From NCBI GenBank assembly GCA_003134555.1, contig PLBO01000135.1, positions 1 to 64,000 of the forward strand: a stretch of 64,000 nucleotides of DNA, in the 5' to 3' direction. The notes beneath the pieces are model-generated. The model searched no databases and was not told the DNA's origin. It saw only the letters and a list, made by a program, of their open reading frames with translations. This DNA comes from Actinomycetota bacterium. Lineage in GTDB: Bacteria; Actinomycetota; Acidimicrobiia; IMCC26256; PALSA-610. This document shows positions 5,831 to 54,892 of this stretch, in pieces. The number at the start of each line of letters is the position of its first letter. Positions within the stretch are counted from its first letter, which is position 1. The position numbers and the translations under genes were made by a program.

Positions 5831-6003
5831 ATCACTGCTGAACCACCAACTGCGGTCCCGTCACCGTGTGCCTCGACCGCCCGTCTTCCTGATCCGCGGT
5901 CGGTCGCCCGGTTGGCGATTTCCCAAGCGCGGGCATTGTCGGTCGTGGTTCCATGCGATTCGGTTCCGTCGACCGACCGGCGAAGTTGAATTGAGATTCG
6001 GAA

Positions 6004-26000: not shown

Positions 26001-27320
26001 CTGACCCTCTCAGCCGCGTTCACGAAAGCGGTCTTCACCGTCCGTGACAACTCGAACATCCAAGTGAGCGTCACCGGCACAACAACCATCAACAACAACG
26101 CCTGGCATCATCTCGTCGGTGTCCGTAACACCACCACCAACCTGATGTCACTCTACGTCGACGGAATACTCGATGGCAGCGCTAATGGCGCCTCACTAGG
26201 AGCACTTACAACCAATACGACAACCGTCGGCGCCCTCAAACGGCCGGCAGTCGGCAACTTCGTCAACGGCACGGTAGATGAAGCCGCGTACTACACAACC
26301 GCGCTCGACGCCGCGTCCATCGCACGCAACTACTACAACGGTACCCATGCCAGCCCGACCGTCGCCTCGTACACCTACAACGCTGACGGCACCCGCACCG
26401 CCAAAGCCGTTGACGGCATCAAAACCAACCTCACGTGGGACAACGCCGAAGGCCTGCCGCTCCTCGCCTCCGACGGCACCAATCAATACGTCTACGGGCC
26501 CGGCGGCGCACCGCTTGAGCAAGTCAATATCAGCAACTCGAGCGCCGTCTACTACCACCAAGACCAACAAGGCTCCACCCGCGCCGTCACCGACCAAGGC
26601 GGCAACCTTCTCAGTACCTACACCACCGACGCCTTCGGTAATCCGACGGCGTCGAGCGGCATTGCTCAAACACCACTCCGATATGACGGCCAGTATCGCG
26701 ACAATGAAACCGGTTTCTCATACCTCCGCGCCCGCTACTACGATGCGAGTACTGCTCAGTTCCTCAATCGCGACCCGATAGACGCCCTTACCCGCTCCGC
26801 GTACGGCTACGCGGAGGGTGATCCGCTCAACGGAGATGATCCGACCGGGCTGTGCAAGCACCACAAGGGCATCGGCGGCTGGTTCCGCGACAAGGCATGC
26901 CAGGCGGGCAACACGTTGGATCTCGGAAGCCCGGACAATCCGCTGCGCAAAGCCGCCGAGAACGGCTCGGGTGTGTCGACCGTAATCGAACGCGCCGATC
27001 CCGCCTACTACATGGTCAGCGGCTACTACAACGAGTGGAAGGCCGCCGAGGCCGGCTGCTCCGGCTGGACCGTCGCCAAATATGGCGCCGAAGGCGTCGC
27101 CGGCGCCGTCGCCACGGTCGGCGTTGCGGCCGTCGGCGGCGAAGTCGCTGGCTTCATCGAGAGCCCGGACGCGGTATGGGAGATCGGCGATCGCGGGTTC
27201 CACTTGCACTACGACGACGTTCCACATGGAGACATGGGCTCACATCTGCAGCTCAATACCTGGCTAGATGGCGTCAAGGGAAGCGGTCGGGACTGGCGCT
27301 TCCCTTGGCCACCGTGGTGA
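20088..27320 (+). CDS. RHS/YD-repeat protein with two NHL propeller segments, two LamG-like domains and a variable toxin-like C-terminus
   Basis: 2410-aa ORF; many YDxxGRLxxxTD repeats; CRRCHAQPIDSASGNFYETYVDIAIPG start of the RHS region; RYDGQYRDNETGFSYLRARYYDASTAQFLNRDPI core end, then a unique C-terminus. Confidence 0.9.
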   Translation: MIRFVLLVSLGVAAVPRTHVFERRSLRDRALALTLVLAVAFSWVATHESMGDSTGRGGASFGTLVAAIGHEVAVGANAASHAIASTTVAVADRAMSLLGDTRAKRTRRVVAAGGGTGLLGGARRAAAASSSGGDPGINPALVSTWAGSGTNATVDGTGASASFRTMGGVVVVGSFAYVGTTGSIRKVDLSSAAVTTLAGDASATGCTDSSTPSAVRFGQVVDVATDGTYLYATQSDCGSGFTYLVRKVTIATGATTTLTTAPSAFSYSGYVTYSGGYLFMSGSSVLKIDVSSVPDTSSTFATLGDTGHGIVGDGTSLWVSVGSSSSSSAIESVSLSTGTVGTLVSASDATLWTNSIEAAGSSLYLSSGTSLRRYSESDGSWSNIAGAAAGYADGTSSDAWFSSQISGIGSDGSSLYVADLGNYRLRKAVPGTALPAGLQSYASTRVSMSLAQVSTFAGNGTNQNIDGTGTSASFGSPAGGVVVGGYAYVGTSTAIRKVSLATGAVTTLAGDLSTSACVDSADHTQVRLRNISALDTDGYYLYSLSDACSGAAVALRRTSLATGATSTILSNLSSAFRLTVGPGGTIYYIVGSWVYSVDPRTGVSTQIATLPDNGTAIAADANYLWVTSGHAGGVNGPGASYLDRITVGGTHTMTQIATAPETPLMATALVSTGDYLYGQVRIPNGTSYDLPVTRISKADGAYVVIAGSGNNGYVDGLGTAAQFTTIVGLASDGTNLWAVDNGNFRLRKLVQSAGPSTQESWVPNASELGYCRRCHAQPIDSASGNFYETYVDIAIPGRSPALGESRTYGSLNASYNGPFGYGWSSSYDMHLQLGAGTPPSTVDVVQENAAFVSFSWNGTQYVAPPRVLATLVRNGDGTYTFTRRLQSQFVFDANGLLIKEIARNGFAGSPSPGVVAAYTTTLAYVSGRLSTVTDAAGRTLTFSYGTNGKVSGVADSTGRSVGYGYDGAGNLSDVTDVGSGNTHFGYDANHLLQTVRDPRGNTVETNVYDSIGRVLTQTDALTRTTTFDFTSIPGSTKVTDPKGNVTVEAFTNNMLMSETKGYGTASAATWTYTYDSSTLGVLSVTDPNLHAKNYTWDPSGNPLTASDALTHTTTWTYNAFGEPLTVQDAKLVTTTNTYDTAGNLTSTATPLVEQPGQTQTTTYTHGDTAHPGDVTSITDPRSKVSTFTYDTSTGDLLSQTSPLGDKTTYTYNAAGQRLTMVTPAGNVTGGNPATYRTTYVPNVFGQVTSITDPLSHQTQQVYDADGNLHQVIDPLTHTTTYDYDVANQQITITRPDTTDLHNDYWPDGSLKTQTDGAGNITSYAYDPLGRLSSTTDPKSRVTNYTHDGAGNLKTSQDPALRTTTLGYDIADRLTSVTYSDGITPNVAYTFDNDNQRLTMVDGTGTTTSVWDSLHRLTSQTNGSSQTMGYGYDLANNLTTITYPGSHTVTRVYDDAGRLHTITDWLTHATTYDYDHNSNLTTQTYPNTTVATYTPDAANRLMNIADTKSGSTFASFGYTRNSADLLTGVTPTGVGQSNETYGYTSLNQLNAVNASSYTFDSADNLTGMPSGTKLAYDTANQLCWTATTTAACASPPAGATTYSYGSAGERTTMTPPTGNPTINYAYDQAYRLTDVRGAGYRTAVLASNPVGYWRLGEASGTSAADSSGNAHAGTYTGGGLTYGVSGATATDANTAATFNGTSSYVNTGNLGVGNFSTFTDETWIKTSTSAAPYFLAEGNSGTSTPFQGLHLNATGHVLFTVRDNVNVVAEITGSSVVNNNAWHHIVGVRNGTTVSLYVDGKSDATPVTVGTLGSLTLTTSTIGALSRTSVANFFAGTIDEPALYPAALTAARINNHYQAAKSNYAGTVTGSTPDVYWRLGETSGTTATDTSGNGQTGTYTPAFPVSATGALTSDTDKAVTFNGTTQYVNDTVAAGTASTFTMEAWVKTAQSSGAAPYFIGKGSTSSNTPFEGLTLSAAFTKAVFTVRDNSNIQVSVTGTTTINNNAWHHLVGVRNTTTNLMSLYVDGILDGSANGASLGALTTNTTTVGALKRPAVGNFVNGTVDEAAYYTTALDAASIARNYYNGTHASPTVASYTYNADGTRTAKAVDGIKTNLTWDNAEGLPLLASDGTNQYVYGPGGAPLEQVNISNSSAVYYHQDQQGSTRAVTDQGGNLLSTYTTDAFGNPTASSGIAQTPLRYDGQYRDNETGFSYLRARYYDASTAQFLNRDPIDALTRSAYGYAEGDPLNGDDPTGLCKHHKGIGGWFRDKACQAGNTLDLGSPDNPLRKAAENGSGVSTVIERADPAYYMVSGYYNEWKAAEAGCSGWTVAKYGAEGVAGAVATVGVAAVGGEVAGFIESPDAVWEIGDRGFHLHYDDVPHGDMGSHLQLNTWLDGVKGSGRDWRFPWPPW

Positions 27321-36022: not shown

Positions 36023-37495
36023 TCAAATGGGCTCTGCGTGCGCGATGAGCTCGTCGAGCATGCGACGGCGCGGGACTCCGTCGTCGGTTAGCGGGAGAGT
36101 CGGAACTCGCAGGAGGCGTTGCGGAACCGTCTGGTCGTTCGCGCGGCAGACCTCGATGATCGAGCCACGCGTCGGCTGATCAGAACAGACGAGGAGTGCA
36201 TAGATGTCCGATTCGCTCCCGACGCGACCCGGTCGTGAGAGCACCGCCGCGATTTCGACCATCGGGTGACGCTCGAGTGCGCGCTCGAGCTGTACCGGAT
36301 CGATGTTCTTGCCGCCACGAATGATGAGGTCATCGGCGCGTCCTGTGATGACAATGTTGCCGTCCGTCCCGGAATATCCACGATCGCCCGTCTTCCACCA
36401 ACCGTCGGCGTCGGTGAACCGCTCGATGCCATTCGAGCGTACGTAGCCGAGCGCGAGTGATCTGCTTCGCACTCTGACGATGTCTTCGTCGAGGGCGACC
36501 TCGACGCCCGGAAGGGCTCTTCCTACCGTGCCGTGCCGAACTTCGCGCGAATCGTTCAAACGTGAGATCGAAATCGGTCCACCGGCTTCGGTTGCGCCGT
36601 ACCCGACGGTCACGGCGGCAGCGAGCGTATCTTCGAGATCGGCCGCTATGGCAGCCGGTGCTAAACCACCGCCGATGCCGACATGCAGCAGCGAATCGCC
36701 CGTAGACCGAGACTCGCGTCTCAGGAGGCGAACGAGTTGTTGCGCCATGAACGGCGCGAGCGAGAGGTTCGTGACGCAGTGCGCATCGATGTCGTTTGCG
36801 AGTCGTTCGAGCGAGAACCCGTTGTGGAGCACGATGTGATCGCCGCAGCAAAGCGCTTGGAATGCGATGGTCAGGCCCGCGACAGTCCAAATCGGCATGC
36901 CGCCGAGATAGGTCAAGCCCAGATTCGGGCCGGAGGCGGTTGCCTGAAGTTGGGATGCAACGTCGTCCTCGATCGGTGTGCTAGGGAGCATTTCCGCGCG
37001 TAATCGCTGCAGTTGGTAGATGGCATGCGCAAGGCTCGCGTCGTCGTGCACGATGCGCTTCGGCTCCCCCGAGGTACCGGCGGTGGACAGGCAGACGCTG
37101 CCCGGTGGCAATGCGATGCGCGGCCGTAATGTGGGGAATACGGAATCGGAGTATGGCATCGCGCCGACGACGAGGTCCGCGATCTCGGAGTGCTTCGCAT
37201 GGGAGGTCGGTGCACATACGGATATCGGTGTGCCGGACCCGAGAGCAGCTAGCAACCAAACGAGTGTCGACGCGGGTTCGTGCGCCAGAACCGCGACCTG
37301 ACGTGCGTGCAGCGTTTCCAATACGCTGGCCACCCGCTCGACCTCGTCGAGCAAGTCGCTGTAGGTCCAGACCCCGAAGTCAGCCGTTATGGCTCGTTGC
37401 GAAGCATGCGCGCGAGCAGCCGCCGTAACCGTCCGAGCGACTACCGAGGATTGATTCGACCGCCCAAATCGACTGTTCGCCGCCACTTGTTCCAT
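36023..37495 (-). CDS. AMP-dependent acyl-CoA/ACP ligase (ANL family)
   Basis: Start MEQVAANSRF; STAGTSGEPKRIVHDD, VGYGATEAGGPIS, GWWKTGDRGYSGTDGNIVITGRADDLIIRGGKNIDPVQLERAL. Confidence 0.87.
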   Translation of the reverse strand: MEQVAANSRFGRSNQSSVVARTVTAAARAHASQRAITADFGVWTYSDLLDEVERVASVLETLHARQVAVLAHEPASTLVWLLAALGSGTPISVCAPTSHAKHSEIADLVVGAMPYSDSVFPTLRPRIALPPGSVCLSTAGTSGEPKRIVHDDASLAHAIYQLQRLRAEMLPSTPIEDDVASQLQATASGPNLGLTYLGGMPIWTVAGLTIAFQALCCGDHIVLHNGFSLERLANDIDAHCVTNLSLAPFMAQQLVRLLRRESRSTGDSLLHVGIGGGLAPAAIAADLEDTLAAAVTVGYGATEAGGPISISRLNDSREVRHGTVGRALPGVEVALDEDIVRVRSRSLALGYVRSNGIERFTDADGWWKTGDRGYSGTDGNIVITGRADDLIIRGGKNIDPVQLERALERHPMVEIAAVLSRPGRVGSESDIYALLVCSDQPTRGSIIEVCRANDQTVPQRLLRVPTLPLTDDGVPRRRMLDELIAHAEPI

Positions 37496-38448
37496 CACAC
37501 CTCCGAAGGAATCGGGGAATCTTCCGCGCGAGAGTCCAGCGGCGCCGATTGATGCCGTTGCCGGAACCAGCGGCGATACGCCGCTATCGGATCCGTGCGC
37601 TTGAGGAGCGGCGCCGCGAGATACCGGCGATGCGCCCATATTTCAGCGTCCTGGCAGAACTGGTCGTAGAGCCCATCGGCGAGCGCCGCCAACACGGGTC
37701 CACGGAATCCGCGAGCGGTCCGGGGCTCGGCCTTGATGCACGTCGTCGAAATCGTCTCGTGGGCCGTTACCGGCGTGAGCCCGCCCACGACTGTTAAGGA
37801 GACGATGCTGTCGAAGCGGGCGACCGTCATTCCAGTCCCGATGCACGCCACGGAGATGACCGCCTGCCGCAAGCTCTCCCCAAGTCGCACTTCGTGGCTC
37901 GAGCTCACCGAGAAGCCAACGTCGTCGAACTCAAGGCTTTCGAGCCGAGGCGGACCGGCGGTCGCATGGACCCAGCTGAAATGGTCCATGTCAACGAGGT
38001 TCTCGAGCACGTCGTGCACACTCGCACTGATCCGCTCGGACCAAGATCGGACCTCGATCCTTGCGTCCAACTTCCATGGAGCGAGCCGCCGATCGATCGA
38101 GGCTACGTCAGGATTGGATCGTCGGGCGCCGAGCGCGCCGAACAGCAGCGAATCGACTTGCATCAGCGGGACCGAGCTCGTCGTCGGTCCGATACTCGCA
38201 CAGACGCATCGTCGCGCTTCGAGCCCGGATCCAGTCGCGTTCCAGGCAGGACATCCGCACGTGGTGCACAACCACGAGTCGCCTTGTAGATGGCCACGAG
38301 AGTCCGAGTGAAGCGCCACGTCACCGAACAGCGTCTCTACGCGCCCGCCCATGGGTTCGAAGCGGTCGATGGTTCCCAAGCAGAACCAGCCACCGGACGG
38401 AAGTGGTGACTCCCGAGAGTTCGCGTCCACACCCCGTCGCTCCGGCAC
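37495..38448 (-). CDS. Rieske non-heme iron oxygenase homologue (KshA-like) with degenerate Rieske motif
   Basis: SGGWFCLGTIDRFEPMGGRVETLFGDVAL; ENLVDMDHFSWVHATAGPP mononuclear Fe site; AEIWAHRRYLAAPLLKRTDPIAAYRRWFRQ; no CxH...CxxH. Confidence 0.7.
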   Translation of the reverse strand: MPERRGVDANSRESPLPSGGWFCLGTIDRFEPMGGRVETLFGDVALHSDSRGHLQGDSWLCTTCGCPAWNATGSGLEARRCVCASIGPTTSSVPLMQVDSLLFGALGARRSNPDVASIDRRLAPWKLDARIEVRSWSERISASVHDVLENLVDMDHFSWVHATAGPPRLESLEFDDVGFSVSSSHEVRLGESLRQAVISVACIGTGMTVARFDSIVSLTVVGGLTPVTAHETISTTCIKAEPRTARGFRGPVLAALADGLYDQFCQDAEIWAHRRYLAAPLLKRTDPIAAYRRWFRQRHQSAPLDSRAEDSPIPSEV

Positions 38449-38452
38449 TGAC

Positions 38453-39079
38453 TCACGAATCGAGCGGGGTCGTCTTCATATAGGCCTCGCGATAGAGGGC
38501 CAGGATCAAGAGATCCCAATAGCGCCCCGCGTAGAACTCGTGATCACGCATGCATCCCTCAATCTGAAACGCCTTCCCGGTTCCACTGGAGAATTGAGCG
38601 AAGTTGAACTCGGGAACCTCGGCGTACAGCTTGCGCAACGGCCACATCGAGAATGTGTAGTTGATGAACATCTTCCCGGCCTCGAGCGTCCAGCCGCGTC
38701 GAACGAGACTCGGCTTCACGGCCATCGCGATGAAGGCGGTCTGGAAGCGGAAGTTTGCGTTGTACACGAAGACGTGGCCGACTCGTTGGCTGTCGGCATT
38801 CGCGCAGATCACGAACTGGGCGAGGATCCCGGTCCACAAGCCCTGATGAAACGCGTCTGGGCTCGGCGTTTCGCCGCGGTGACGCCAACGAAATCCGAGT
38901 TCCTCGTCGCAACCGAGGGCGTACAGAAAATCGTAGTCGCTCTCGTCGACCGGTCGGAGCGTTGTCCGTCTCCCGGTCAGGGTCGGGACGTTCGTCACGT
39001 CCGCCGGAGTATACGAGCCAACGTGAGGACCCAGCACTGGGTGCGTCGCCGTCTGCAAGCCGTCTCGCATTGAAACCAC
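38453..39079 (-). CDS. GNAT-family N-acyltransferase
   Basis: LTGRRTTLRPVDESDYDFLYALG...QFVICANADSQRVGHVFVYNANFRFQTAFIAMAV; homologous to the N-terminal part of 54044-54892. Confidence 0.82.
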   Translation of the reverse strand: MVSMRDGLQTATHPVLGPHVGSYTPADVTNVPTLTGRRTTLRPVDESDYDFLYALGCDEELGFRWRHRGETPSPDAFHQGLWTGILAQFVICANADSQRVGHVFVYNANFRFQTAFIAMAVKPSLVRRGWTLEAGKMFINYTFSMWPLRKLYAEVPEFNFAQFSSGTGKAFQIEGCMRDHEFYAGRYWDLLILALYREAYMKTTPLDS

Positions 39080-39090
39080 GACTGGTCTCC

Positions 39091-39348
39091 TCAGCTCTGG
39101 AGGTACACGGAGTAAAGATCGCCGAACGTCGTGATCGACTCCAACGCGCTGTCTGATATCAGCGCGCCGAGATCGTCTTCCACAATCGTCAGGAGCTCGA
39201 ACACCTCGATGGAGTCGAGCGCGAGTCCTTCGAATGTGGCCGTCTCTCGCGGAGGATCGCCAAGCGAGATCGCGGCCGAGAGATGGGCGGCGAAGGCGTC
39301 GTAGCTCAGTCGTTCGCGATCTGGTGCGGCGCTTGCGTTGGTAGTCAT
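39091..39348 (-). CDS. Acyl carrier protein
   Basis: Start MTTNASAAP; EGLALDSIEVFELLTIVEDDLGALISDSALESITTFGDLYSVYL with DSI phosphopantetheine site. Confidence 0.82.
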   Translation of the reverse strand: MTTNASAAPDRERLSYDAFAAHLSAAISLGDPPRETATFEGLALDSIEVFELLTIVEDDLGALISDSALESITTFGDLYSVYLQS

Positions 39349-39863
39349 GTGCTCACCTCGAAGGCAACAGCGGCCATGAGTGCGCCGCGATGAATCGTCA
39401 GCCGCCAGCAACCCGACGCGTCAGGAACAAAGCCGGACCCATATTCACTTCCCGGATATTTTCGAGTCGATCCAGGATGAAGCTCGGGACCGAACAACAA
39501 TGCCGCGGGCGCGCCGACAGGGTTCGACAGAACGAGCTTGGGCATTCCCGACCCGGTCACGTTCCAGACGATCTTGATCTGAGATCCAACGAGATACCGC
39601 CGATACTGGTAGGCGGAGGACTCGACGAAGACCACGGCTTCGCCTCCGGTCGCGGGCAATCGGAAGTTCGACTCATTGGGGCTGAGCGCGTTCGGACATG
39701 ACGACACGACTGTGCGCGTCGTCGGCGGCACCGATCGGACCGCCGACTGCGTCGACCTCGGGCGGGAAGGGTCTGTCCCGTTGGCGCAGGCCGTGACCGT
39801 GACGCTCGCCAACGTGGCGGCGAAGAACGTCGAGGCCCGCTTGCGCCCGAGATGCGCGTTCAC
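39345..39863 (-). CDS. Secreted/lipoprotein-like protein
   Basis: ASTFFAATLASVTVTACANG signal with weak lipobox; TGA overlaps the ACP ATG (ATGA). Confidence 0.6.
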   Translation of the reverse strand: MNAHLGRKRASTFFAATLASVTVTACANGTDPSRPRSTQSAVRSVPPTTRTVVSSCPNALSPNESNFRLPATGGEAVVFVESSAYQYRRYLVGSQIKIVWNVTGSGMPKLVLSNPVGAPAALLFGPELHPGSTRKYPGSEYGSGFVPDASGCWRLTIHRGALMAAVAFEVST

Positions 39864-39872
39864 GTCGTGACA

Positions 39873-40160
39873 CTACGAGAGATGTCCGACAGTCGTGCCC
39901 GATGCCGCGCTGACCCACACCGGCCCGTCGGCCTCCGTCACGACATCCATGAGCCTGGGGGTCATCGAGCCCGAGCCCGATGCGACCATCGCCGATTCGA
40001 TGCCGGCACCGTACGTCGGTTTCACCGGACCCCAGTACCACGCGAACTCGTCGACTGGGACCACACCTGTGTCGGTCTTTTGCATCCCGCGGCTGATGTG
40101 CACGACCGTGACGCCATTGCGGTCTTCCACGAACACGAAACCTCGATCGAGTCTGGGCAT
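39873..40160 (-). CDS. Small hypothetical protein in the operon
   Basis: MPRLDRGFVFVEDRNGVTVVHISRGMQKTDTGVVPVDEFAWYWGPVKPTYGAG; ends 10 nt before the next gene. Confidence 0.5.
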   Translation of the reverse strand: MPRLDRGFVFVEDRNGVTVVHISRGMQKTDTGVVPVDEFAWYWGPVKPTYGAGIESAMVASGSGSMTPRLMDVVTEADGPVWVSAASGTTVGHLS

Positions 40161-40187: not shown

Positions 40188-40571
40188 CTAGGACGCCGGC
40201 GCGTGCAACGCCGCCTTCGCCTCGAAGGCGCGGCGCATAACTTGTGACCAACTACCAACGGTGTCCATGATGTCGGATTGGAAACGCACCCCGTGGTTCA
40301 ATGCGTAGTGCGCCGCGTCGATGTGACGTGCGCACCCACCCATCGAGAACATCGAGGCCTGATCGCTCCAAATCGAGAGCGAGATCAACTCGCGTTCGCG
40401 CCACCGAAGTCGCGTCTTTCCTGTGACATAGGCGGCGCGGGTCCTCTTCACCTCCCGTTCGATGCGCCACGCCCGCAGGCGCAGGTGCAGGAGATGTCGA
40501 CGTTTGTCGCACTGGAACCGCACACAAACCGCGATCGGCGCGTGTAGTTGTCCATTGTCGGCGTTCGACAT
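40188..40571 (-). CDS. Heme-degrading/antibiotic-biosynthesis monooxygenase-fold-like small protein
   Basis: MSNADNGQLHAPIAVCVRFQ...RWRERELISLSIWSDQASMFSMGGCARHIDAAHYALNHGVRFQSDIMDTVGSW; ATG 40571. Confidence 0.5.
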   Translation of the reverse strand: MSNADNGQLHAPIAVCVRFQCDKRRHLLHLRLRAWRIEREVKRTRAAYVTGKTRLRWRERELISLSIWSDQASMFSMGGCARHIDAAHYALNHGVRFQSDIMDTVGSWSQVMRRAFEAKAALHAPAS

Positions 40572-40585: not shown

Positions 40586-41212
40586 TCAGATGACGCGCAT
40601 GGCGACCACGATCAAAGACGCCAAAATCGCGACGCGACCTGCCCATCGCGCTCGCTGCCGCTCGACGGTGACGAAGTCGGTGCTCTGAATGACCAACGAC
40701 GACCGTCGCGCCGAGAGCGGCACGCGGCGCTGTTCTTGATTGCGCCCGAGTCGCTCGAGGAAGCGCGGGCCGAGCAGGTACGTCGTGATCGTCATCGCGC
40801 CGTACGTAGCCGTGCCGACGATCGGGGCCGGGCCACCCAGCCAGAGTGCGAACGCCACCCAGGCCCAGAAGACGTTCGAGACGCGATACGTGGTCGCGCC
40901 CAGACCAATATCGAATCCCGCGATCGCGCCTGCGGTCAAAGGCGTGAACCTGTCGAAGGAATTCTTGGGCGTTTGCCGCCGCATCGTGAGGACGTGGTCC
41001 GAGACGTCTGCGGTCAACAAGAGTACAAGTGTTGTGAAGATCAACACGGTCGGGAGCGGGCTCGACAAGATGTCGTCGGCCAGCTTGTCGACTCCTACGA
41101 GGACTGATGCCGAGACTGCAGCGGCCACGACCGTCCCGAGGATGTACCCGGCCGCGATCTGGCGACTGCGAGCTGGAGACGAGCGAGTCAGACGACCGGT
41201 CACGCCGATCAA
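40586..41212 (-). CDS. Integral membrane protein
   Basis: ILGTVVAAAVSASVLVGV, LPTVLIFTTLVLLLTADVSD, VFWAWVAFALWLGGPAPIVGTATYGAMTITTYLLG. Confidence 0.65.
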   Translation of the reverse strand: MIGVTGRLTRSSPARSRQIAAGYILGTVVAAAVSASVLVGVDKLADDILSSPLPTVLIFTTLVLLLTADVSDHVLTMRRQTPKNSFDRFTPLTAGAIAGFDIGLGATTYRVSNVFWAWVAFALWLGGPAPIVGTATYGAMTITTYLLGPRFLERLGRNQEQRRVPLSARRSSLVIQSTDFVTVERQRARWAGRVAILASLIVVAMRVI

Positions 41213-41221
41213 TGAAAGACC

Positions 41222-41284
41222 TCAAAAGCTGTACAGCTGCGCGTAGCCAGCGATCGAAGCAAGCGCAACCACGACGAAGACCAT
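41222..41284 (-). CDS. Possible 20-aa membrane micropeptide
   Basis: MVFVVVALASIAGYAQLYSF between two operon genes; below the ORF-track cutoff. Confidence 0.3.
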   Translation of the reverse strand: MVFVVVALASIAGYAQLYSF

Positions 41285-41289
41285 GCCCG

Positions 41290-41706
41290 TCAGAAGCTCC
41301 CACACCCGCCATAGGTGGAGTAGCTCTCGCAGTAGCACTCACCACAGCAGTATTTCGGTGTGCCAGAGTGATGTACGGTCGGGCACGTCCATATGTACTT
41401 GTCGCTGCCTGTGCACCCGCAGTTGTTCATTTCGGAAAGCGGCTTGACGTTGTTCAGAAAGCGGAGGTTGCAACAGCCCGGAGATGCCTCCGCGCTCTCC
41501 GAGCCCAACTGCAAGGTGCCGAACGTGGCGCCGGCCACTGCGAGCCCGGCGACGCCCATGCGCTGGACGAACGAGCGGCGACTGATGTCATTGGAACCAG
41601 TACTCGCGCGAAATCGCGATCCGCGCGCGAACGCCGCGAATCGGTGCGTACGAGGACGCGATTCGTCGGCCATGGTGGGTGAGTGGTCTTGAAGGATTGT
41701 CGGCAT
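41290..41706 (-). CDS. TAT-exported Cys-rich small protein, MauA-like C-terminal pattern
   Basis: SRRSFVQRMGVAGLAVAGATFG twin-arginine signal; mature CCNLRFLNNVKPLSEMNNCGCTGSDKYIWTCPTVHHSGTPKYCCGECYCESYSTYGGCGSF (10 Cys). Confidence 0.75.
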   Translation of the reverse strand: MPTILQDHSPTMADESRPRTHRFAAFARGSRFRASTGSNDISRRSFVQRMGVAGLAVAGATFGTLQLGSESAEASPGCCNLRFLNNVKPLSEMNNCGCTGSDKYIWTCPTVHHSGTPKYCCGECYCESYSTYGGCGSF

Positions 41707-41754
41707 GTGCGACCTCTCCTCTCGGAGACGTTGGGACGAACGATTCGAACTTGA

Positions 41755-42348
41755 CTAAGACGGAGTCGGAACGGTCGTGGAGGTAGCGGTGCTTTCATCG
41801 GTCAGCGAAACGACGCGTGGTTCGGGCCGGGCCCGAACGTCGGCGATGTGCGGGAGGTCGTAGATGGTGTAGGCGCCACCGAGCCGGCCGTTGCGAACGC
41901 GAATGAGCAACGGCGACAGGCTGATGCCGAAGGTCGTCCGACACCATTTGCCGCCCGGGTCTACGTATGTCACGTACTCGTGGAGGTCGTACTGATCAAC
42001 GAAGCCGGCGCCGAGAGGCTCACCCGAGGTCGATATCACGATCCGAACCTCGACACCCCTATTGGCGGGGGGCGCATTACCGAGCTGCTCCGCCACGTGG
42101 TGGCACGACGCGCAGAGCGTGCTCAGGATCAACACGTCGAACGAGTCGTCGTCCGCGTCTCCACCTGGCCAATGAACGGGCTGGACCGTGCTCGCCGACA
42201 GATCCACACGGGTCGGCGATGCCGTGTACGCCATGTCCACGGCAGGTGCCGCCGCAACCCCGTTCTTCACCCGGGCCGCCAGCTCAGCCATCATCGCGAA
42301 CAAGAAGGCGATCGCGACCGTGAGCACGGCGATGGGAATCCAGATCAC
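41755..42348 (-). CDS. MauD-like membrane-anchored thioredoxin-fold protein
   Basis: N-terminal TM IPIAVLTVAIAFLFAMMAELAARVKNG; VLILSTLCASCHHVAEQL (CxxC); FGISLSPLLIRVRNGRL. Confidence 0.72.
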   Translation of the reverse strand: MIWIPIAVLTVAIAFLFAMMAELAARVKNGVAAAPAVDMAYTASPTRVDLSASTVQPVHWPGGDADDDSFDVLILSTLCASCHHVAEQLGNAPPANRGVEVRIVISTSGEPLGAGFVDQYDLHEYVTYVDPGGKWCRTTFGISLSPLLIRVRNGRLGGAYTIYDLPHIADVRARPEPRVVSLTDESTATSTTVPTPS

Positions 42349-42878
42349 GCGCCAGCCCCTTTCAACCCGATGTCGATCACCGGACGCAGTCCGGCTCGAC
42401 GGCGATACACGATCGAGGCCGCAATTGCTGCGCTGATCACGACCGCGGCGATCGAGCTCGCCGCGCGTGCTGCGTCTGACCTCAAGTCATTGCCGAACAC
42501 GAGGGCCGCAACCGATCCGCCGAGAAGGGCGAGCGCGAGCCAACTCGCCATACCGCCGACGTCGGCGACCGCGCCAAAGCACCCGCAATCACGTGCAACG
42601 GCATGTTTCGTCAACCGCTCGAGCGCGTTAAACGCTACGAAGCCCGCCGTCAAGATCAGTGCGACGATCAGCGCCGCGCGAGCAAAACCGGCTATGAGCA
42701 ACGGCGTCGGACTGCACTCCGCCAACGCGACGAGTGAGACGAGTACCGCTGCAAGGCGAGGAGAAACTCGCACGACCCGGGCAAGTTCACTGGCGGCGGC
42801 GGCTGGCGCGAGCAGCTTCCCGAGACCGGAGAGAAGCAACGTTGCTGCAACCACTGAGGCCGCCAAAGTACCGACCAC
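42345..42878 (-). CDS. MauE/DoxX-like membrane protein
   Basis: ATLLLSGLGKLLAPAAAASELARVVRVSPRLAAVLVSLVALAE; DCGCFGAVADVGGMASWLALALL (CxCFG motif); TGA overlaps MauD-like GTG. Confidence 0.72.
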   Translation of the reverse strand: MVGTLAASVVAATLLLSGLGKLLAPAAAASELARVVRVSPRLAAVLVSLVALAECSPTPLLIAGFARAALIVALILTAGFVAFNALERLTKHAVARDCGCFGAVADVGGMASWLALALLGGSVAALVFGNDLRSDAARAASSIAAVVISAAIAASIVYRRRAGLRPVIDIGLKGAGA

Positions 42879-43534: not shown

Positions 43535-44145
43535 GGCTCTTCTGCTTGATCCGTGGGGTGGTTGCGGTGTTGGTCCGCGAGTGCACCCCGCCCGTTTTCT
43601 AGGTTCGGAGCTGTCTAAGGGCTTCGATCCAGGAGGTAAGGCGGGGTGCGGGACAAGAGCGTATGGGAACGCGCGTGTGGGCTCACGCGCACGGTCGTGG
43701 AGCGTGTTGAGTTCGACGATGCCGCGGACGCGATCGTGGTGGCGGTGCGGCCCGTCGCCAGAGCGCGGAGCAGGTGCGGCCTGTGTGGTCGCCGCTCGCC
43801 GGGCTATGACCTTGGTGACGGTCGGCGGCGGTGGCGGGCGTTGGATCTGGGGACGACGAAAGTGTTCCTCGAGGCGACCGCACCCCGGGTTCGGTGCCGG
43901 ACGCATGGGGTGACGGTCGCGGCGGTGCCGTGGGCGCGTCATGGTGCGGGTCATACCCGCGACTTCGACGATCTGGCGGCGTGGCTCGCGGTGCGGACCT
44001 CGAAGAGCGCGGTGATGGAACTGTTACGGGTCGCGTGGCGCACCGTTGGGTCGATCGTGACGCGTGTGAACGCGGACATCGACGCGACCGTTGATCGGCT
44101 CGACGGGTTACGGCGGATCGGGATCGATGAGATCTCCTACAAGCG
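43535..44145 (+). mobile_element. ISL3-family element, 3'-truncated
   Basis: Left end GGCTCTTCTGCTTGATCCGTGGGGTGG; transposase MRDKSVWERACGLTRTVVERVEFDDAADAIVVAVRP...CGLCGRRSPGYD...RRIGIDEISYKRG then loss of frame and similarity. Confidence 0.75.
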
Positions 44146-44814
44146 CGGACTTCCTCGCCGTGCAGGTAGCTCCCATCGTGGCCGAGGTCGACGACACATC
44201 GGACCAATACCTGCTCGGAGCCCGCGGAGTCACGATTGAAGTTGGCCTCCGATATCGCGAGGACTGGTCACCGTCGACCAGTTGGCAGCCGGCCGCGCAC
44301 CACTCCCGATCGCAAGAGAACTACTACCTCCAGCGCCAAGCAAGACTCTGGGATCACCTTGCCGTGTCGATCGTGCTGCGCGACCGCCACTTCCTTTCGT
44401 CGCTGCGTGAACTCGTCACGAAGGACGCTGAATAGCAGCCCCGGGCCACCGACGTCGCACGCCGCTGGGGTCCCGGCCCTGACACTCCCGACGGTCGCGA
44501 GCCCGGTCGATGGGTTCGGCGTGGCCGAGGAGCGTGGCCGACTACGAACGAACCACGGCCGCGCTTCGTGCTGCGAGTAGCGGGACCGGCCTGCGGTGTC
44601 GGATTAGATCACGGGGTTCCGGCGACGCCTTCTCGGTCGGAGGAGCGGACTCGCTGTAAGCCTTTACGCGCAAGACGCTTCGGTGAACCGTGATCCTGCA
44701 GCGATGCGGCTCGCCGAGCTGATTGCCCGTTATCAGAACGAGCCGGTGTTTGTTGACGTCTGGGTGAAGAGGCGTTCACGCTGCGTTACTTGACGTCGGG
44801 TGGAGGATGACCGC

Positions 44815-44843: not shown

Positions 44844-44952
44844 TGCCCAGACCTCGCAGTCGCACGCCCGAGGGGTTCTCTTGTGCGCTGCTGGCAGCTC
44901 TGGGATCGCCTCTTGGAAGGCAGTCGCGTTCTCAGATTCAGTCCGGGGGATC

Positions 44953-47205
44953 ATGATGCACTCTCGTTCGCACGTTCGGTCGTTGTTCTTGAAGAACGAG
45001 CAGGGCGGACTCCGACCAGCTCCGGTATTCGTCGCCATCGCTGGCCTCGTGGCACTGAGCGTCGTTCCTGTTCGGGCGGTCTTGGCGCAAACTCAAACAG
45101 CGCCCGGGCCGGCGAAAGCCCAGCCCGGGCGCCAGGTTTCCGCGGCCGCTCCATTTCAGCTCGCGAGTGGCACGACGACGAATGGGCTTGGGCAGGATCC
45201 GAACACGTCGTTTTGTTTCCAGCCAAATCCCGCCCCCACCGAGACGCCTGGCGGTATCCCCTCCACGTCGAACCCCCAAACGATTGCAACCGATCCGGTG
45301 AATCCCACCTGCAGCACAGCGACTGGGGTGCCGCCGAATCCGTTTATCGTCACCAAATCGCCGCTGCCCTGGCCCGGAGCCATCGCGGGTGCGAAATGGA
45401 TCGGAGCGCGGGCGGATGGCGGGGACAGCGTCGCCGGCACATCGCCTCCCCAGTGGTACATCTATGACCGTCACTTCGATGTTCCGTGCGCTTCTGGTTC
45501 GCTGAGCGGAAGTGCGTATGCGGACAACGCGGTCGCGGTGTTCCTCAACGGTCAACTGCTCGCGTCGCAGACCGACACGGGCGGCGGGGGTGCAGACGCC
45601 AAGAACTTCGGCGGCAACTCAGCGCCGCCTCTGGCGTTTGGCGCACCGCTCACGCATACATCCAATGTCGTCGACTTCGTCGTCCGGGACGCCTCAGCGG
45701 CCAGCACGGGTCTCGACTACAGCATGACCGTCACGCCGGGTACCACGAACTGCTGCACGCTCGGAGAGTTCGGCAACCCTCCCGACGCGACGAGTCAAAT
45801 GCAGGTGGCGTGCACTCTGACGACGCCGGCCGCGACTGCGGCGGCCCTCACGCCGAAGACAGAGGATTTTCCCGAGACACTGTGGCACTGGGGCGCCGCG
45901 CGCAAGACTGCCGCGGACGGCTCGACAACCATGGGCTCGAAGAACATCGCCTCGGCATCGGCGCACTTCACGGCGGCGGACATCAACCACGGGATCAGCG
46001 TGATCAGTGGTCCGAACTGCATCCCGGTCCGCGCGTTCATCATCGCGGTCGGGGGCCCGAACAACGCGACCATCAACCTGACCTCGCCATGTAATTCCGG
46101 TGGCGCGGTTTTCTTGATCGAGAACTCCCCGGCGCGCTCGGTGATCGACGGCCACTGCAGCCAGGCAAGTACTACGCTGACGTCGGCCACCGCGAACTTC
46201 AATCCTTCAGATGTCAACAAGAGCATCGAAGGACCGTGCCTTCGGCACGGCACCGTCATCACGGCGGTCTCGAGCCCGTCAACCGTGACGATCAATCAGA
46301 CCCCGGCGAGCAGCACGTCGATGGGACTGTTGACGATCGGGGAGGAACAGCCAAGCAGCACGACACGAGAAGCCAGCGACGGACACACCACCAGCGCGTC
46401 GACGACAGTGACGTCGGCGTCGGCGAACTTCCAACCCACCGACACAAACCTCCCCATCACCGGCTCGACGTGCATCCCCGCGGGCGACTACATCAAAACC
46501 GTCACGAATGCGACGACGGTGGTCCTGAACGCCGTCGCAACGTGTACCAGCGCAAGTGTGGTTCTCACCATCGGGTTGCCGAACCGTGACGCGCCCCTCA
46601 GCGGCGACGTCATGACCCAGTTGGGCTCTGAGAGCGACATAAATCCCGCCCTCGGTCCGAATCCCGATCTCAACGAGTCCCAAGGCGCGGATCCCTGCAG
46701 TGCCAATACCCCGGAGGGTCTGAACTTCCAGGGCCAGTGGTTCAACCCGGGTTCGTTCCAATCCGTGGGTGTCCTGGGCGCGTATCCGCAGGCTTCGCTT
46801 ACCTCTCCGGCGATCGCTCAGATCGTGATCCGCACTCAGTTCGCCAGCTGGGCCGGATACGTCACCCAGGTCACAGCCGGGATGGCCGGCGAGTCACAAC
46901 CGGCCGCCCACTACGACGTCACCTGGCCGTTCTGGCCGCTCGGCTCCCTTGGGATGTGTCCGTCCCCCAGCACGCTGGGCGCGGCTTGGTCGTGGCAATA
47001 CAACGGGATCACCGTCACCCAACAGGGGCTTCAGGCGGGTCTGGGCACCCCCGGCACCCAGACAGTGCGAGACACCAAGGACTTCCTCTTGGGCCAGACA
47101 ACGAAGACGACGACGGCGTTCGAACACCTCGGCACGTTGACCATGTCAACGAACTGCACTGAGACCTACCCCGACACGACTGACTTCGGGTGTGGCGACG
47201 GCTAA
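44953..47205 (+). CDS. Large secreted protein with tandem repeat modules
   Basis: Signal PAPVFVAIAGLVALSVVPVRAVLA; three copies of a (T)LTSATANFxPxDxNxxI...GTxIxxVxxPxTVxI module. Confidence 0.75.
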   Translation: MMHSRSHVRSLFLKNEQGGLRPAPVFVAIAGLVALSVVPVRAVLAQTQTAPGPAKAQPGRQVSAAAPFQLASGTTTNGLGQDPNTSFCFQPNPAPTETPGGIPSTSNPQTIATDPVNPTCSTATGVPPNPFIVTKSPLPWPGAIAGAKWIGARADGGDSVAGTSPPQWYIYDRHFDVPCASGSLSGSAYADNAVAVFLNGQLLASQTDTGGGGADAKNFGGNSAPPLAFGAPLTHTSNVVDFVVRDASAASTGLDYSMTVTPGTTNCCTLGEFGNPPDATSQMQVACTLTTPAATAAALTPKTEDFPETLWHWGAARKTAADGSTTMGSKNIASASAHFTAADINHGISVISGPNCIPVRAFIIAVGGPNNATINLTSPCNSGGAVFLIENSPARSVIDGHCSQASTTLTSATANFNPSDVNKSIEGPCLRHGTVITAVSSPSTVTINQTPASSTSMGLLTIGEEQPSSTTREASDGHTTSASTTVTSASANFQPTDTNLPITGSTCIPAGDYIKTVTNATTVVLNAVATCTSASVVLTIGLPNRDAPLSGDVMTQLGSESDINPALGPNPDLNESQGADPCSANTPEGLNFQGQWFNPGSFQSVGVLGAYPQASLTSPAIAQIVIRTQFASWAGYVTQVTAGMAGESQPAAHYDVTWPFWPLGSLGMCPSPSTLGAAWSWQYNGITVTQQGLQAGLGTPGTQTVRDTKDFLLGQTTKTTTAFEHLGTLTMSTNCTETYPDTTDFGCGDG

Positions 47206-47429: not shown

Positions 47430-48294
47430 TCGGTCGCGGGCCACGCCCGCGCCCTGTTCGATGCCGACGTGTGCGACGTCGAGGTGAACGATCGGGTGCT
47501 CGCCCCACCGATGGTCGCTGCGGCCGTGGCGGGTCGAGACGTTCAAGTTGTCGAATGATCCGAACTTCGAATCGAAGCTCGTTGATGTCGTTGGGTTGTA
47601 TCTCAATCCACCGGAACGGGCGGTGGTGTTCAGCTTCGATGAGAAGACGCAGTACCAAGCGTTGGATCGCACACAGCCGTCGTTGCCGATCAAGCCGGGC
47701 CGAGCCCGCACGATGACCCACGACTACAAACGCAATGGCACGATCGATCTGTTCGCCGCGTTGAACGTCGCGACTGGCGAAGTTCTGCACGAGACACGTC
47801 AGCGACATACCGCCGACGATGTGTTGGCGTTCTTCAAGTCGGTCGACGCGCATGTCCCGAAACATCTTGATGTGGATGTCGTGCTCGACAACCTGTCCGC
47901 GCACAGCGCACCACCCGTCGCGAAGTGGCTCGAGCACCCAAGACGAGCTCGTTGGCACCTGCATTTCACGCCCACGAGTTCGTCGTGGCTCAATCTCATC
48001 GAGGGCTGGTTCGCGCAGCTCACGAACCGGCGGCTCCGCACCGGCACCTTCGATTCCGTCACCGCCTACGAACGCACCAGCTTGATCGTCACGACCAACC
48101 TGCCGTTCGAATCATGGACCGAGGTCCTCGGATCCGAACGACTCACCGGCGCCGCCCTCGACCGCCTCACCCACCGTTGCCGGATCATCGAAACCAAAGG
48201 TGAGAGCTACCGGCTCCACGACGCCAAGACCCGAACTCGGTCAACGAAACATCAGGCAGGGGTGGCGACACCCAAGACCCCCACGGCAGACTGA
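47430..48294 (+). pseudogene. IS630-family DDE transposase remnant fused in frame to an IstB C-terminus
   Basis: AVVFSFDEKTQYQALDRTQPSLP...DVVLDNLSAHSAPPV...FTPTSSSWLNLIEGWFAQLTNRRLRTGTFDSV then TAYERTSLIVTTNLPFESWTEVLGSERLTGAALDRLTHRCRIIETKGESYRLHDAKTRTR as in 30442-31254. Confidence 0.88.
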
Positions 48295-48621
48295 CAATCA
48301 ACCAACGCGCTATCGTTTTCGACGAACACGCGCTGTCGGATTGAAGAGCGTTCACACTCATTGGGGTAACGGCTGTCGGAAGCGGGGCCTGCGTGTGTGC
48401 GCGGTGGCTTCCGCACCTGCCTTCGGTCGCAGAGCTTGGCTATAGACCACCCCTCAACTGCGTACCGAGAAGCGCATGTCGCGACCTCGTGCTCGCGAAC
48501 CGGTTATTCCTGGCTCTACGCGATGGAGCGTGGTTGGCGGCCTCGCACTCTTGCGGTTGGGACAGTGTGATTCGGCCTGGTATCCGCGGGTGCTCCCTGC
48601 CTTGGAAACGAGGATGGAGCT

Positions 48622-48960
48622 ATGGCAACCAGTGGAACGCGGCGTAGGCCGCAGAAGTATCCGGATGAGCTGCGTGAGCGGGCGGTCCGGATGGTGTTGG
48701 AGGTCCGGCGCGAGACCGGCGAACGGCATGGGACGATCACCCGTGTGGCTCGTGAACTCGGGGTCGGCGCGGAGTCGTTGCGGCACTGGGTGAGCCAGGC
48801 CGAGATCGATTCGGGTCGTCGGCCGGGAACGTCGAGCCTGGACGCGCAGCGGATCGCGCAACTTGAACGCGAGAACCGCGAGTTGCGTCGAGCGAACGAC
48901 ATCTTGAAAGCCGCGTCAGTTTTCTTCGCGACCGAGCTCGACGGTCGTCCGAAGAAGTAG
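48622..48960 (+). CDS. IS3 OrfA (HTH)
   Basis: MATSGTRRRPQKYPDELRERAVRMVLEVRRETGERHGTITRVARELGVGAESLRHWVSQAEIDSG...LERENRELRRANDILKAASVFFA. Confidence 0.9.
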   Translation: MATSGTRRRPQKYPDELRERAVRMVLEVRRETGERHGTITRVARELGVGAESLRHWVSQAEIDSGRRPGTSSLDAQRIAQLERENRELRRANDILKAASVFFATELDGRPKK

Positions 48961-48962
48961 TC

Positions 48963-49817
48963 ACGTTCATCGACGCTCACCGGAGCCGCGACTCCGGTGG
49001 GCTGCGATGGGGGATCGAGCCGATCTGCCATGCGTTGGAGATCGCCCCCACGACCTACTGGTCGGCCAAGACCCGACCGCCCTGCGCGCGGGCGTTACGT
49101 GACGCGGTGGTGGGCCCGAAGATCGAGGCGTTGTGGCTGAAGAACTACTCGGTCTATGGGCGACGCAAGCTCGCGAAGGCTGCTCGCAAAGCCGGCCTCG
49201 ACGTGGGCCGGGATCAGGTCGCTCGGTTGATGCGCACCCACAGCATTCGAGGGGCGAGCCGGGCTCGCGAACGGTTCACGACCCATGCCGATCCCGCCGC
49301 GGTGCGCGCACCGGATCTGGTGTGCCGTGACTTCACCGCGACCCGCCCGGACCACAAGTGGGTCGCGGACTTCACGTATTGCTCGACGTGGAGCGGGATC
49401 GTCTACGTCGCGTTCGTCGTCGATGTGTACTCGCGTCGGATTGTCGGCTGGAAAGCGGCGCGGACGATGCACGCTTCGCTGGTCGTCGACGCGTTGAACA
49501 TGGCCGCGTGGACGCGGCGCGACACCAGCCTCGACGGGATCGGCGCGTCGCCATCGATCGGCACCGTTGCCGACAGCTACGACAACGCCATCGCCGAGTC
49601 GGTCAACGCGCTCTACAAGACCGAACTGCACCGCAACCCCGCCGCACTCGCCGCCAACGGCGGTCCGTGGCGCGGTCTCGACGACCTCGAGATCACGACC
49701 TGTGGGTGGGTCGGCTGGTTCAACAACGAACGCCTCCACGGCGAACTCGACGACCTCACCCCAGCAGAGATCGAAGACAACTACTACCGTCACCAATCTC
49801 AGACCCACGCGGCCTGA
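48963..49817 (+). pseudogene. IS3 OrfB transposase with internal deletion
   Basis: TFIDAHRSRDSGGLRWGIEPICHALEIAPTTYW...KWVADFTYCSTWSGIVYVAFVVDVYSRRIVGW...TSLDG-IGASPSIGTVADSYDNAIAESVNALYKTEL; the HSDxGSQYTS segment is absent. Confidence 0.85.
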
Positions 49818-49841
49818 GAAATCCAACCCAACGAGCACCCG

Positions 49842-51113
49842 TCAAACCCAGGCCGAATCAGTGTGCCACTGCACGCCGCAGTGCAACAGGAGGCGTAGCC
49901 GGTAGTTGTTGAAGTTGCGGAAGCCGTGACCGACGCGTTTGACCTTCTTGATCAACAAGTTGATCCCTTCGGTCGGCCCGTTCGAACGGCCGGTCGTGTG
50001 GAAGGCGAGCACTTCGGCTTCCCAGGCTCGGATGGTGCGCGCGAGTCGTCGGCATTCGCGCACGCCGGTCTGGTCGCAGTGTTCGTAGAAGCGACGCAGC
50101 CGACGACGCGCGGCGCGGACCGTGCGCGCGTCGTACACATCACGCAGAAGCTCCTTCGCGAAGTAGGTCGCGGTGACGTCACCGTGCCGGTCGCCGTGAC
50201 CCAACATCGTGAGCACCCGTTCGTGTTGTTGGTCGGTGAGGCGTTCGTGACCGACGAGCAGGCGGCGGCGGATCCGATACAACGGATCGTCGCGTCGACC
50301 ACGATGACCGAGCGATTCTTGTTGCACGCGGCGACGAGCATCGTCGATCGCCTTGTTCGCCAACCGGATCGCGTGGAAGTGATCAACCACGATCGTCGCG
50401 TCGAGCCGGTCGGAGAGCCCGGTCGCGTAGCCGCGGAACGGGTCGATGACCGCAACGTCGATCGCCGCAACCCACTCGGATGGTTGATCATCGAGCCAGT
50501 CGCGAACGACCTGACCAGAACGCCCTTCGGCGACATCGAGAAGCTTGTGCCGGTCCAGGTCGACGAACCCGGTGATCATCACCCGCGAGCGCTTCGGACC
50601 CGACCGCAAGAAGCTGGTCTCGTCCAGCCCGAGCGCGCTCGGCGCGCCCAGACGATCCGGATCAGCCACGAGCCGCTCCCCGTGTTCGCGCACCGCAGCC
50701 ATCGCGGTGTGCCATCCGACCCCGAACGCGCGAGCGACCTGCGCGACGCTGTCGGCGTCCTCACCGACCCGGCGGCAGATCTCGACCCGAGCTCGTCGCG
50801 TCAACGACGCCCGCGGGCTGATCTGATCGTGCGTCTCGCTCCACGTTGCCGTCGCGCAGTCGCCGTCCGGGCAGCGCCAGACGCGCTTCGCACACACCAG
50901 ACGGACCGGCCGACCCGCGATCGGAAGATCACGCACGTGCACCCGCCGGCGGCCATGACCGACCGCCCGCACCCCACACGCCGGACAGCCCACCCGATCG
51001 GCCGTCGTCTCAACCAACCACCACCACTCGCCACCTTCGAGCACATGCGCAACGACCACGAAACCGACAATGTCGAACAACGCGGTCGCGCCATCACTAC
51101 CGTGACCAATCAC
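49842..51113 (-). pseudogene. ISL3-family transposase, C-terminus interrupted by IS3
   Basis: CPACGVRAVGHGRRRVHVRDLPIAGRPVRLVCAKRVWRCPDGDC, LGLDETSFLR, VDHFHAIRLANKAIDDARRRVQQE, KKVKRVGHGFRNFNNYRLRLLLHCGVQWHT; remaining VPTARVRGRQPRSIA* is left of the IS3 at 48516-48567. Confidence 0.9.
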
Positions 51114-54043: not shown

Positions 54044-54892
54044 TTACCCCCGACCAGGCAGACGCTGCTCCAGCCACGAGTAAACGTCATCCAATGACCG
54101 CCATTGGTCAAGTACAGGATCTAACACTGCCTCGCCAGCAAGCTCCTCGACCAGGACAACCAACGCATAAAGGGAGAGAGAGTCTAGCTGTATGTCGTTG
54201 AGCGAACTTGAGATGGTGAGCATGTCACTCTCATCGAGCAGGAGCTCCACTCTCACCAGATCCAAAAACTCCTCGGCGTTGTCCGGAGGCCGCTGTGACG
54301 CACGTCGGCGGAGATCGTTCTCCCAGTCCGTGCGATGGAGCGCCAGGATCAGGCGATCCCAGTATCTACCGTCGAAAAATTCATGGTCAACCAAGCGCGC
54401 TTCTTCGCGGAGCAAGCGCTCGGGTGCGCTTGCAAACTCGACCTGACAGTACTCAGGCGACTCCAAGTATAGCTTTCGAAATTGCCAGTTTTGGAAGCAA
54501 TAATCTATGAGCAGCTCAATGCCCTCAATCGCCGCAGGCCTTCGGCGCCAGACTTCGGCAGAGAGAGCTGCAAGATAGGCGACACCATTCTTTAAATCGG
54601 CGTTGTAGCAAGTTACTACGCCGACGATCGACCCGCTGTCAGTGCTCTCGACGACAAAGCTTGCCAACACGCCTTCGAAGAGCGAGCGAGCATACTGCTC
54701 GGGGCTCGGGGTCGACGCGCGAAACCTCCATCGGTAGATGTTTTCCGGGGATAGCTCGATGCTATACAGAGGCCCGAAGTCGGCCGGTTCAATCGGGCGC
54801 AGGAGGACGTGCCGGCCGCGCAACGTCACCGAATGATGTGAACTAGCCGTTACGCCAAGCGTCGATGCAGGCCTCTCCGGCTGAGTCAGCAC
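54044..54892 (-). CDS. GNAT acyltransferase fused to an acyl carrier protein domain
   Basis: VTLRGRHVLLRPIEPADFGPLYSIELSPENIYRWRF...YWDRLILALHRTDW then LVRVELLLDESDMLTISSSLNDIQLDSLSLYALVVLVEELAGEAVLDPVLDQWRSLDDVYSWLEQRL. Confidence 0.82.
   Translation of the reverse strand: MLTQPERPASTLGVTASSHHSVTLRGRHVLLRPIEPADFGPLYSIELSPENIYRWRFRASTPSPEQYARSLFEGVLASFVVESTDSGSIVGVVTCYNADLKNGVAYLAALSAEVWRRRPAAIEGIELLIDYCFQNWQFRKLYLESPEYCQVEFASAPERLLREEARLVDHEFFDGRYWDRLILALHRTDWENDLRRRASQRPPDNAEEFLDLVRVELLLDESDMLTISSSLNDIQLDSLSLYALVVLVEELAGEAVLDPVLDQWRSLDDVYSWLEQRLPGRG

What the first reader, a model, noticed from the sequence alone, without database searches (positions are those of the whole stretch)
41222..42878. 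MauE-like/MauD-like redox pair next to a TAT-exported 10-Cys MauA-like protein, without other mau genes
Seen: coupled genes (GTGA overlap at 42345-42348) encode a MauE/DoxX-like protein with CxCFG and a membrane-anchored thioredoxin-fold protein with CASC. They are followed by a twin-arginine-signal protein whose mature part, about 60 aa, has 10 Cys including KYIWTC and YCCGECYC. Established: MauD and MauE are needed for disulfide formation in the methylamine dehydrogenase light chain MauA, which has six disulfides and a Trp-derived TTQ cofactor. MauA reads SPISWIGTC and CCGKTACGRCQC at comparable places. Inference: this is a miniaturised MauA-type substrate with its own oxidative folding pair. 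No MauB heavy chain or MauG diheme enzyme is seen in this window.
Basis: partly seen in the sequence, partly recalled or inferred. Interest (0 to 1): 0.75.

Follow-up and report, generated by a model that had tools for sequence, protein, structure and literature searches.

The report
Mau-type folding cassette for exported miniprotein
A rare but widely scattered bacterial gene set pairs three relatives of the proteins that help a methylamine-oxidising enzyme fold with a tiny exported cysteine-rich protein, a hidden 20-residue membrane peptide and a small oxygenase-like protein, suggesting a dedicated assembly line for a disulfide-locked secreted miniprotein rather than a small methylamine enzyme.

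Summary
The MauE-like, MauD-like and TAT Cys-rich genes are the first three of a tightly spaced minus-strand operon (42878 to 36023). Six other loci (four Streptomyces, two in the phylum of a "Ca. Dormiibacterota" genome) carry the same order: mauE-mauD-cys-micro-ORF-mauF-ABM-95aa. They were found with MauD or the ABM protein as bait, never with the Cys-rich protein, and all six have it.

The 208-aa neighbour is a MauF relative (hhalign 2e-6, 0 of 100 shuffles). A 19-25 aa hydrophobic micro-ORF (41222-41284) sits before MauF in every locus, including a bridging Thermomicrobium locus with real MauA-like proteins. MauE- and MauD-likeness are confirmed.

"Miniature MauA" is not supported. The mature peptide has no detectable similarity to MauA (80 of 200 shuffles score as well), only one Trp is invariant (TTQ needs two), and no MauG-family protein was found in six cassette genomes.

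Best reading: a Mau-derived E/D/F oxidative-folding module dedicated to an exported disulfide-rich miniprotein, probably RiPP-like. decRiPPter (PMC7794033) already proposed mauE(/mauD) plus Cys-rich peptides as candidate RiPPs, so this is a new variant of a known candidate kind. Product and activity are unknown.

The parts
42345..42878 (-). MauE-like membrane protein (177 aa, GTG start) with invariant CGCFG
   Evidence: Pfam MauE PF07291 36.4 bits, above cut-off 27; profile vs canonical MauE 1.3e-12, 0/100 shuffles
41755..42348 (-). MauD-like membrane-anchored thioredoxin-fold protein (197 aa), CASC; 4-nt overlap with mauE
   Evidence: no Pfam hit alone; profile of 7 vs canonical MauD 4e-8, 0/100 shuffles; CAxC invariant in 7 loci
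41290..41706 (-). TAT-exported Cys-rich protein (138 aa); mature part about 41293-41484 (64 aa, 10 Cys, one Trp in Y-x-W-x-C)
   Evidence: TIGR01409 TAT signal; ortholog in the same position in 6 other loci (alignment)
41222..41284 (-). conserved micro-ORF, 20 aa hydrophobic peptide MVFVVVALASIAGYAQLYSF
   Evidence: 19-25 aa counterpart just upstream of the MauF-like gene in all 7 cassettes and in Thermomicrobium; per-locus chance 0-0.006; 27 of 39 Streptomyces differences at third codon positions
40586..41212 (-). MauF-like multi-pass membrane protein (208 aa, TTG start)
   Evidence: profile vs five MauF proteins 2e-6 at the R.QVP..GxxLGL..T block; 0/100 shuffles, reversed 0.4; controls 0.25 and 0.42
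40188..40571 (-). ABM-fold (antibiotic biosynthesis monooxygenase-like) protein, 127 aa
   Evidence: AlphaFold pLDDT 75.5; Foldseek best hits SnoaB, Rv0793, ActVA-Orf6 family; weak PF13826 in 3 of 5 members
39873..40160 (-). 95-aa cassette protein of unknown fold
   Evidence: ortholog in the same position in 6 other loci
39345..39863 (-). predicted lipoprotein (172 aa)
   Evidence: counterpart after the 95-aa gene in L057 and L076 and upstream of mauE in L056
39091..39348 (-). acyl carrier protein (window-specific extension of the operon)
   Evidence: PF00550 22.7 bits, above cut-off; ATGA overlap with the lipoprotein; not found beside other cassettes
38453..39079 (-). GNAT acyltransferase (window-specific extension)
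   Evidence: PF13302 36 bits; 11-nt gap
37495..38448 (-). Rieske-type oxygenase (KshA_C), window-specific extension
   Evidence: PF19298 61.8 bits; 4-nt gap
36023..37498 (-). AMP-forming acyl ligase, window-specific extension
   Evidence: PF00501 99.2 bits; 4-nt overlap

Best explanation
A dedicated export-and-oxidative-folding cassette. The Cys-rich precursor is exported by the Tat system and its leader removed at AEA|S. The membrane pair MauE/MauD (CGCFG and CAxC), helped by the MauF-like protein and probably the adjacent micro-peptide, then forms or proofreads the disulfides of the 57-66 aa miniprotein. The ABM-fold protein, the 95-aa protein and, in this genome, the ACP/AMP-ligase/GNAT/Rieske genes are candidate tailoring or support functions. 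The product is most likely a secreted disulfide-locked RiPP- or bacteriocin-like peptide. Shown: gene set, order, conservation, family relationships, ABM fold (predicted model). Inferred: substrate relationship, disulfide chemistry, secretion, biological role.
For: Six-gene synteny over 25-35% identity in seven loci. The loci were found with MauD or ABM baits, and the Cys-rich ORF was present each time. MauE, MauD and MauF relationships by profile, with shuffle controls. The E-D-substrate order matches mau and aau clusters. TAT signal. Invariant CC...Y-x-W-x-C...CC...C pattern. Published parallel in Streptomyces: mauE(/mauD) plus peptides with at least 8 Cys (PMC7794033).
Against: No disulfide, export or activity data. 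AlphaFold gives no fold for the peptide (pLDDT 41). Cys count varies (8-12), so the disulfide map cannot be deduced. No obvious immunity gene, protease or peptide exporter is conserved. Natural-product character rests on analogy and on extension genes present only in this genome.
Confidence: 0.62

Rival explanations
1. A true miniature amine-dehydrogenase light chain: a MauA descendant carrying a TTQ (or CTQ) cofactor.
For: Same E-D-A order and a MauF relative; TAT leader aligned with MauA's leader; superficially similar CC / W..C / CC arrangement; Thermomicrobium bridges MauA-like proteins with the micro-ORF and MauF-like gene.
Against: No PF02975 match; mature domain scores like shuffles (80 of 200 as good); one invariant Trp only; no CCP_MauG in six genomes; no MauB-like propeller identified in the cassette.
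Confidence: 0.07
2. The Cys-rich protein is a metal- or cofactor-binding protein folded before Tat export; the Mau-like proteins keep it reduced or serve another substrate.
For: Tat usually exports folded, often cofactor-bearing proteins (general knowledge); Cys density would suit metal binding; the lipoprotein and 95-aa protein could be partners.
Against: No recognisable metal motif or Pfam/NCBIfam match; characterised MauE/MauD act in maturation of the disulfide-rich light chain (PMC7794033).
Confidence: 0.13
3. MauE/MauD/MauF form a general thiol-redox module and the Cys-rich gene is only a frequent neighbour, for example a redox buffer or cell-wall protein.
For: Other solo MauE genes exist in the genome.
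Against: The Cys-rich ORF is between mauD and mauF in seven of seven loci across phyla; cassettes are rare (2 of 397 Streptomyces by the ABM marker), unlike housekeeping redox systems.
Confidence: 0.1

Closest known systems
mau / aau clusters (methylamine and aralkylamine dehydrogenase), Paracoccus and relatives
   Same: MauE, MauD, MauF relatives; E-D-substrate gene order; TAT-type leader on a small Cys-rich exported protein
   Different: No MauB or MauG identified; substrate half the size, no MauA similarity, one invariant Trp; extra ABM, 95-aa and micro-ORF genes
decRiPPter mauE/mauD candidate RiPP families in Streptomyces (PMC7794033)
   Same: mauE, in one family also mauD, beside a precursor with at least 8 Cys and no other mau genes
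Thermomicrobium roseum plasmid locus NC_011961 (L078)
   Same: MauE fused to a propeller-like part, MauD-like, micro-ORF, MauF-like in one run
   Different: Carries two MauA-like proteins (PF02975 36 bits for one) and propeller-like proteins; no ABM or Cys-rich miniprotein
Antibiotic biosynthesis monooxygenases (SnoaB, ActVA-Orf6)
   Same: fold of the 127-aa protein
   Different: 10-16% identity, substrate unknown; not seen in the mau, aau or Thermomicrobium loci examined

Membership tests
MauE family (PF07291) | profile match above the curated cut-off | tested here: met
   36.4 bits against 27; profile vs canonical MauE 1.3e-12
MauD | membrane-anchored thioredoxin fold with CxxC, profile similarity to MauD | tested here: met
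   CAxC invariant, 4e-8 vs four MauD proteins; but no NCBIfam match and a generic thioredoxin relation is hard to exclude
MauF | profile similarity to MauF | tested here: met
   2e-6 over 57 columns, 0/100 shuffles; similarity is local and the window gene alone is divergent
MauA / methylamine dehydrogenase light chain (PF02975) | profile match or mature-domain similarity | tested here: not met
   no match; mature profile no better than shuffles
MauA / methylamine dehydrogenase light chain (PF02975) | two Trp for the TTQ cofactor | tested here: not met
   one invariant Trp in seven orthologs
MauA / methylamine dehydrogenase light chain (PF02975) | MauG diheme enzyme available | tested here: not met
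   no PF03150 match in six cassette genomes
MauA / methylamine dehydrogenase light chain (PF02975) | partner heavy chain MauB | tested here: inconclusive
   none identified in the cassette; the MauB family was not searched genome-wide
RiPP / bacteriocin | short gene-encoded precursor, leader removed, post-translational modification | tested here: inconclusive
   small precursor with TAT leader and redox partners; modification and activity not testable with these tools; no known bacteriocin family matched

The most novel reading that the evidence does not exclude
The cassette builds a Trp-derived redox cofactor on a 60-residue miniprotein without MauG. The single invariant Trp (Y-x-W-x-C) would be oxidised, perhaps crosslinked to a Cys as in CTQ, by the ABM-fold protein, a relative of SnoaB- and ActVA-Orf6-type oxygenases, while MauE/D/F and the micro-peptide set the disulfides. 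It would be a minimal quinoprotein or a Trp-modified RiPP made by Mau machinery.
Probability: 0.08. Interest if true: 0.9.

Novelty: new variant of a known kind. Interest (0 to 1): 0.62.

Why it matters
MauE, MauD and MauF are known as folding factors of one enzyme family. Here the set appears, with a hidden conserved micro-peptide and an ABM-fold protein, dedicated to a tiny Tat-exported Cys-rich protein in unrelated bacteria. That offers a small, genetically tractable model for how the Mau proteins place disulfides. If the product is a RiPP, it defines an anatomy (TAT leader + E/D/F + micro-ORF + ABM) by which further members can be found.

Tried and rejected
Searching with the Cys-rich protein itself found only itself or TAT-leader and low-complexity noise. 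MauA membership rejected. PDB matches to DMBT1/SRCR domains at E about 0.06 rejected as Cys-composition noise. Selenocysteine was considered because tRNA-Sec/selDAB lies beside the Streptomyces cassettes; reading through TGA gave nothing conserved in the cassette genes. RNA hairpins in the gap after the Cys gene: no excess stability, but this exposed the micro-ORF. MauJ similarity of the ABM protein: none. Of the other MauE genes in the genome, the one examined closely (L048) has no cassette around it. A viral-contig scan failed on the machine.

Full report
What is there. On the minus strand an operon starts at 42878 with a MauE-like gene (42878-42345), followed by a MauD-like gene (42348-41755, 4-nt overlap) and a TAT Cys-rich gene (41706-41290). 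Spacing stays at -4 to 77 nt through eleven genes down to 36023. The further genes are a 208-aa membrane protein, a 127-aa protein, a 95-aa protein, a lipoprotein, then an acyl carrier protein, a GNAT acyltransferase, a KshA_C/Rieske-type oxygenase and an AMP-forming ligase.

Conservation. The Cys-rich protein alone finds no relative. The MauD-like protein, however, hit a Streptomyces anthocyanicus plasmid, and a two-row MauD profile found S. tibetensis, Streptomyces sp. Ncost-T10-10d and a 'Ca. Dormiibacterota' MAG. The 127-aa protein then found one more Streptomyces and one more genome in the phylum sample of that MAG. All six carry mauE-mauD-Cys-mauF-ABM-95aa in one order and strand. The cassette is rare: 2 of 397 Streptomyces sampled (one of them the centre of the sample) and 2 of 151 in the Dormiibacterota-phylum sample (again including the centre), and only the window's own genome among 238 of its phylum.

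Family relations. MauE passes the Pfam cut-off. Profiles of the seven cassette proteins against proteins taken from annotated mau/aau clusters give MauE 1.3e-12, MauD 4e-8 and MauF 2e-6, with none of 100 column shuffles reaching the observed score and reversed profiles failing. The MauF match is new relative to the finding. It centres on a block reading RxQVP...GxxxGFDLGLxxTT in the cassette and RAQVP...GLYGLSLGLDYLT in Paracoccus. In canonical clusters the order is mauF-B-E-D-A or B-E-D-A, so the E-D-substrate order is shared. Published work (PMC7794033, quoting van der Palen et al. 1997) links MauE to disulfide formation in the light chain and leaves MauD's exact role open; that MauF is also needed for light-chain formation is my own knowledge, not tested here.

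Hidden micro-ORF. In every cassette a 19-25 aa hydrophobic reading frame lies between the Cys gene and mauF (window 41222-41284, MVFVVVALASIAGYAQLYSF; Streptomyces MVTWLVIAGVAAVLQVFSP). The Thermomicrobium locus has MTLWLVPLALASGCSALWSP in the same place. Simulated gaps give such an uncharged hydrophobic frame with probability 0-0.006 per locus, and among the four Streptomyces 27 of 39 pairwise nucleotide differences are at third codon positions. No such frame precedes mauF in Paracoccus or its relatives. It is not annotated in the one annotated cassette record, the S. anthocyanicus plasmid. That it is translated is inferred.

ABM protein. AlphaFold (pLDDT 75.5) gives a beta-alpha-beta-beta-alpha-beta fold, and Foldseek places it with SnoaB, Rv0793, ActVA-Orf6 and similar antibiotic-biosynthesis monooxygenases. 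A remote relative in Streptomyces matches DUF3291/ABM weakly. Enzymatic function is inferred only.

MauA test. PF02975 does not match the protein or its orthologs. Profile comparison aligns only the TAT leader. With mature domains alone the score is 3.7 against a shuffled mean of 4.0, and 80 of 200 shuffles do as well. Mature orthologs are 57-66 aa with 8-12 Cys and a single invariant Trp in Y-x-W-x-C, whereas TTQ needs two Trp. No CCP_MauG protein was found in six cassette genomes. So the resemblance noted by eye is real as a string but not supported as homology; it may work like a MauA-type client, but membership fails.

Bridge. A Thermomicrobium roseum plasmid region carries two MauA-like proteins (PF02975 36 bits for the annotated one), propeller-like proteins, a propeller-MauE fusion, a MauD-like protein, the micro-ORF and a MauF-like protein. 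It shows that micro-ORF plus MauF-like occurs together with MauA-type maturation genes, and suggests the miniprotein cassette derives from such a set with the substrate replaced or reduced beyond recognition. That last step is inference.

Mechanism. Shown: gene set, order, conservation, family relations, predicted ABM fold. Inferred: Tat export and cleavage at AEA|S; disulfide formation by MauE/MauD/MauF outside the membrane; micro-peptide as a small partner of MauF; ABM and 95-aa proteins as support or tailoring; in this genome the ACP/ligase/GNAT/Rieske genes may add an acyl group. The product is most likely a secreted disulfide-locked peptide.

Prior art. decRiPPter (PMC7794033) listed three Streptomyces candidate RiPP families with mauE, one with mauD, each with a precursor of at least eight Cys and no other mau genes. 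The general idea is therefore published. Features I did not see described in the passages read are the MauF relative, the TAT leader, the micro-ORF, the ABM gene, the cross-phylum conservation and the MauA/MauG negative tests. Whether those families are the same as this one could not be checked.

Noticed in passing
L055, L056, L058, L069 (downstream of the 95-aa gene): All four Streptomyces cassettes abut a tRNA-Sec gene on the opposite strand; selD-selA-selB follow in the annotated plasmid locus L055, and SelD-like frames lie next to it in L056 and L058. No conserved in-frame TGA was found in the cassette. Either an integration hot spot or an unexplained functional link.
   Followed up: partly
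L078 (Thermomicrobium roseum plasmid NC_011961), 684-9316: Unusual Mau-like locus: two MauA-like proteins (one unannotated, about 5800-6280), several propeller-like proteins, a propeller-MauE fusion, MauD-like, micro-ORF and MauF-like.
   Followed up: partly
window 54047-54892 (-) and 38456-39079 (-): Two GNAT proteins 39% identical lie 15 kb apart in the window; the second is outside the operon.
   Followed up: no
window 44881-47205 (+), 43646-44580 and 47548-51113: A 774-aa protein with a signal-like N-terminus and no Pfam match lies upstream of the operon between transposase-like fragments.
   Followed up: no
window 20088-27320 (+): 2410-aa RHS-repeat protein with laminin G domains.
   Followed up: no
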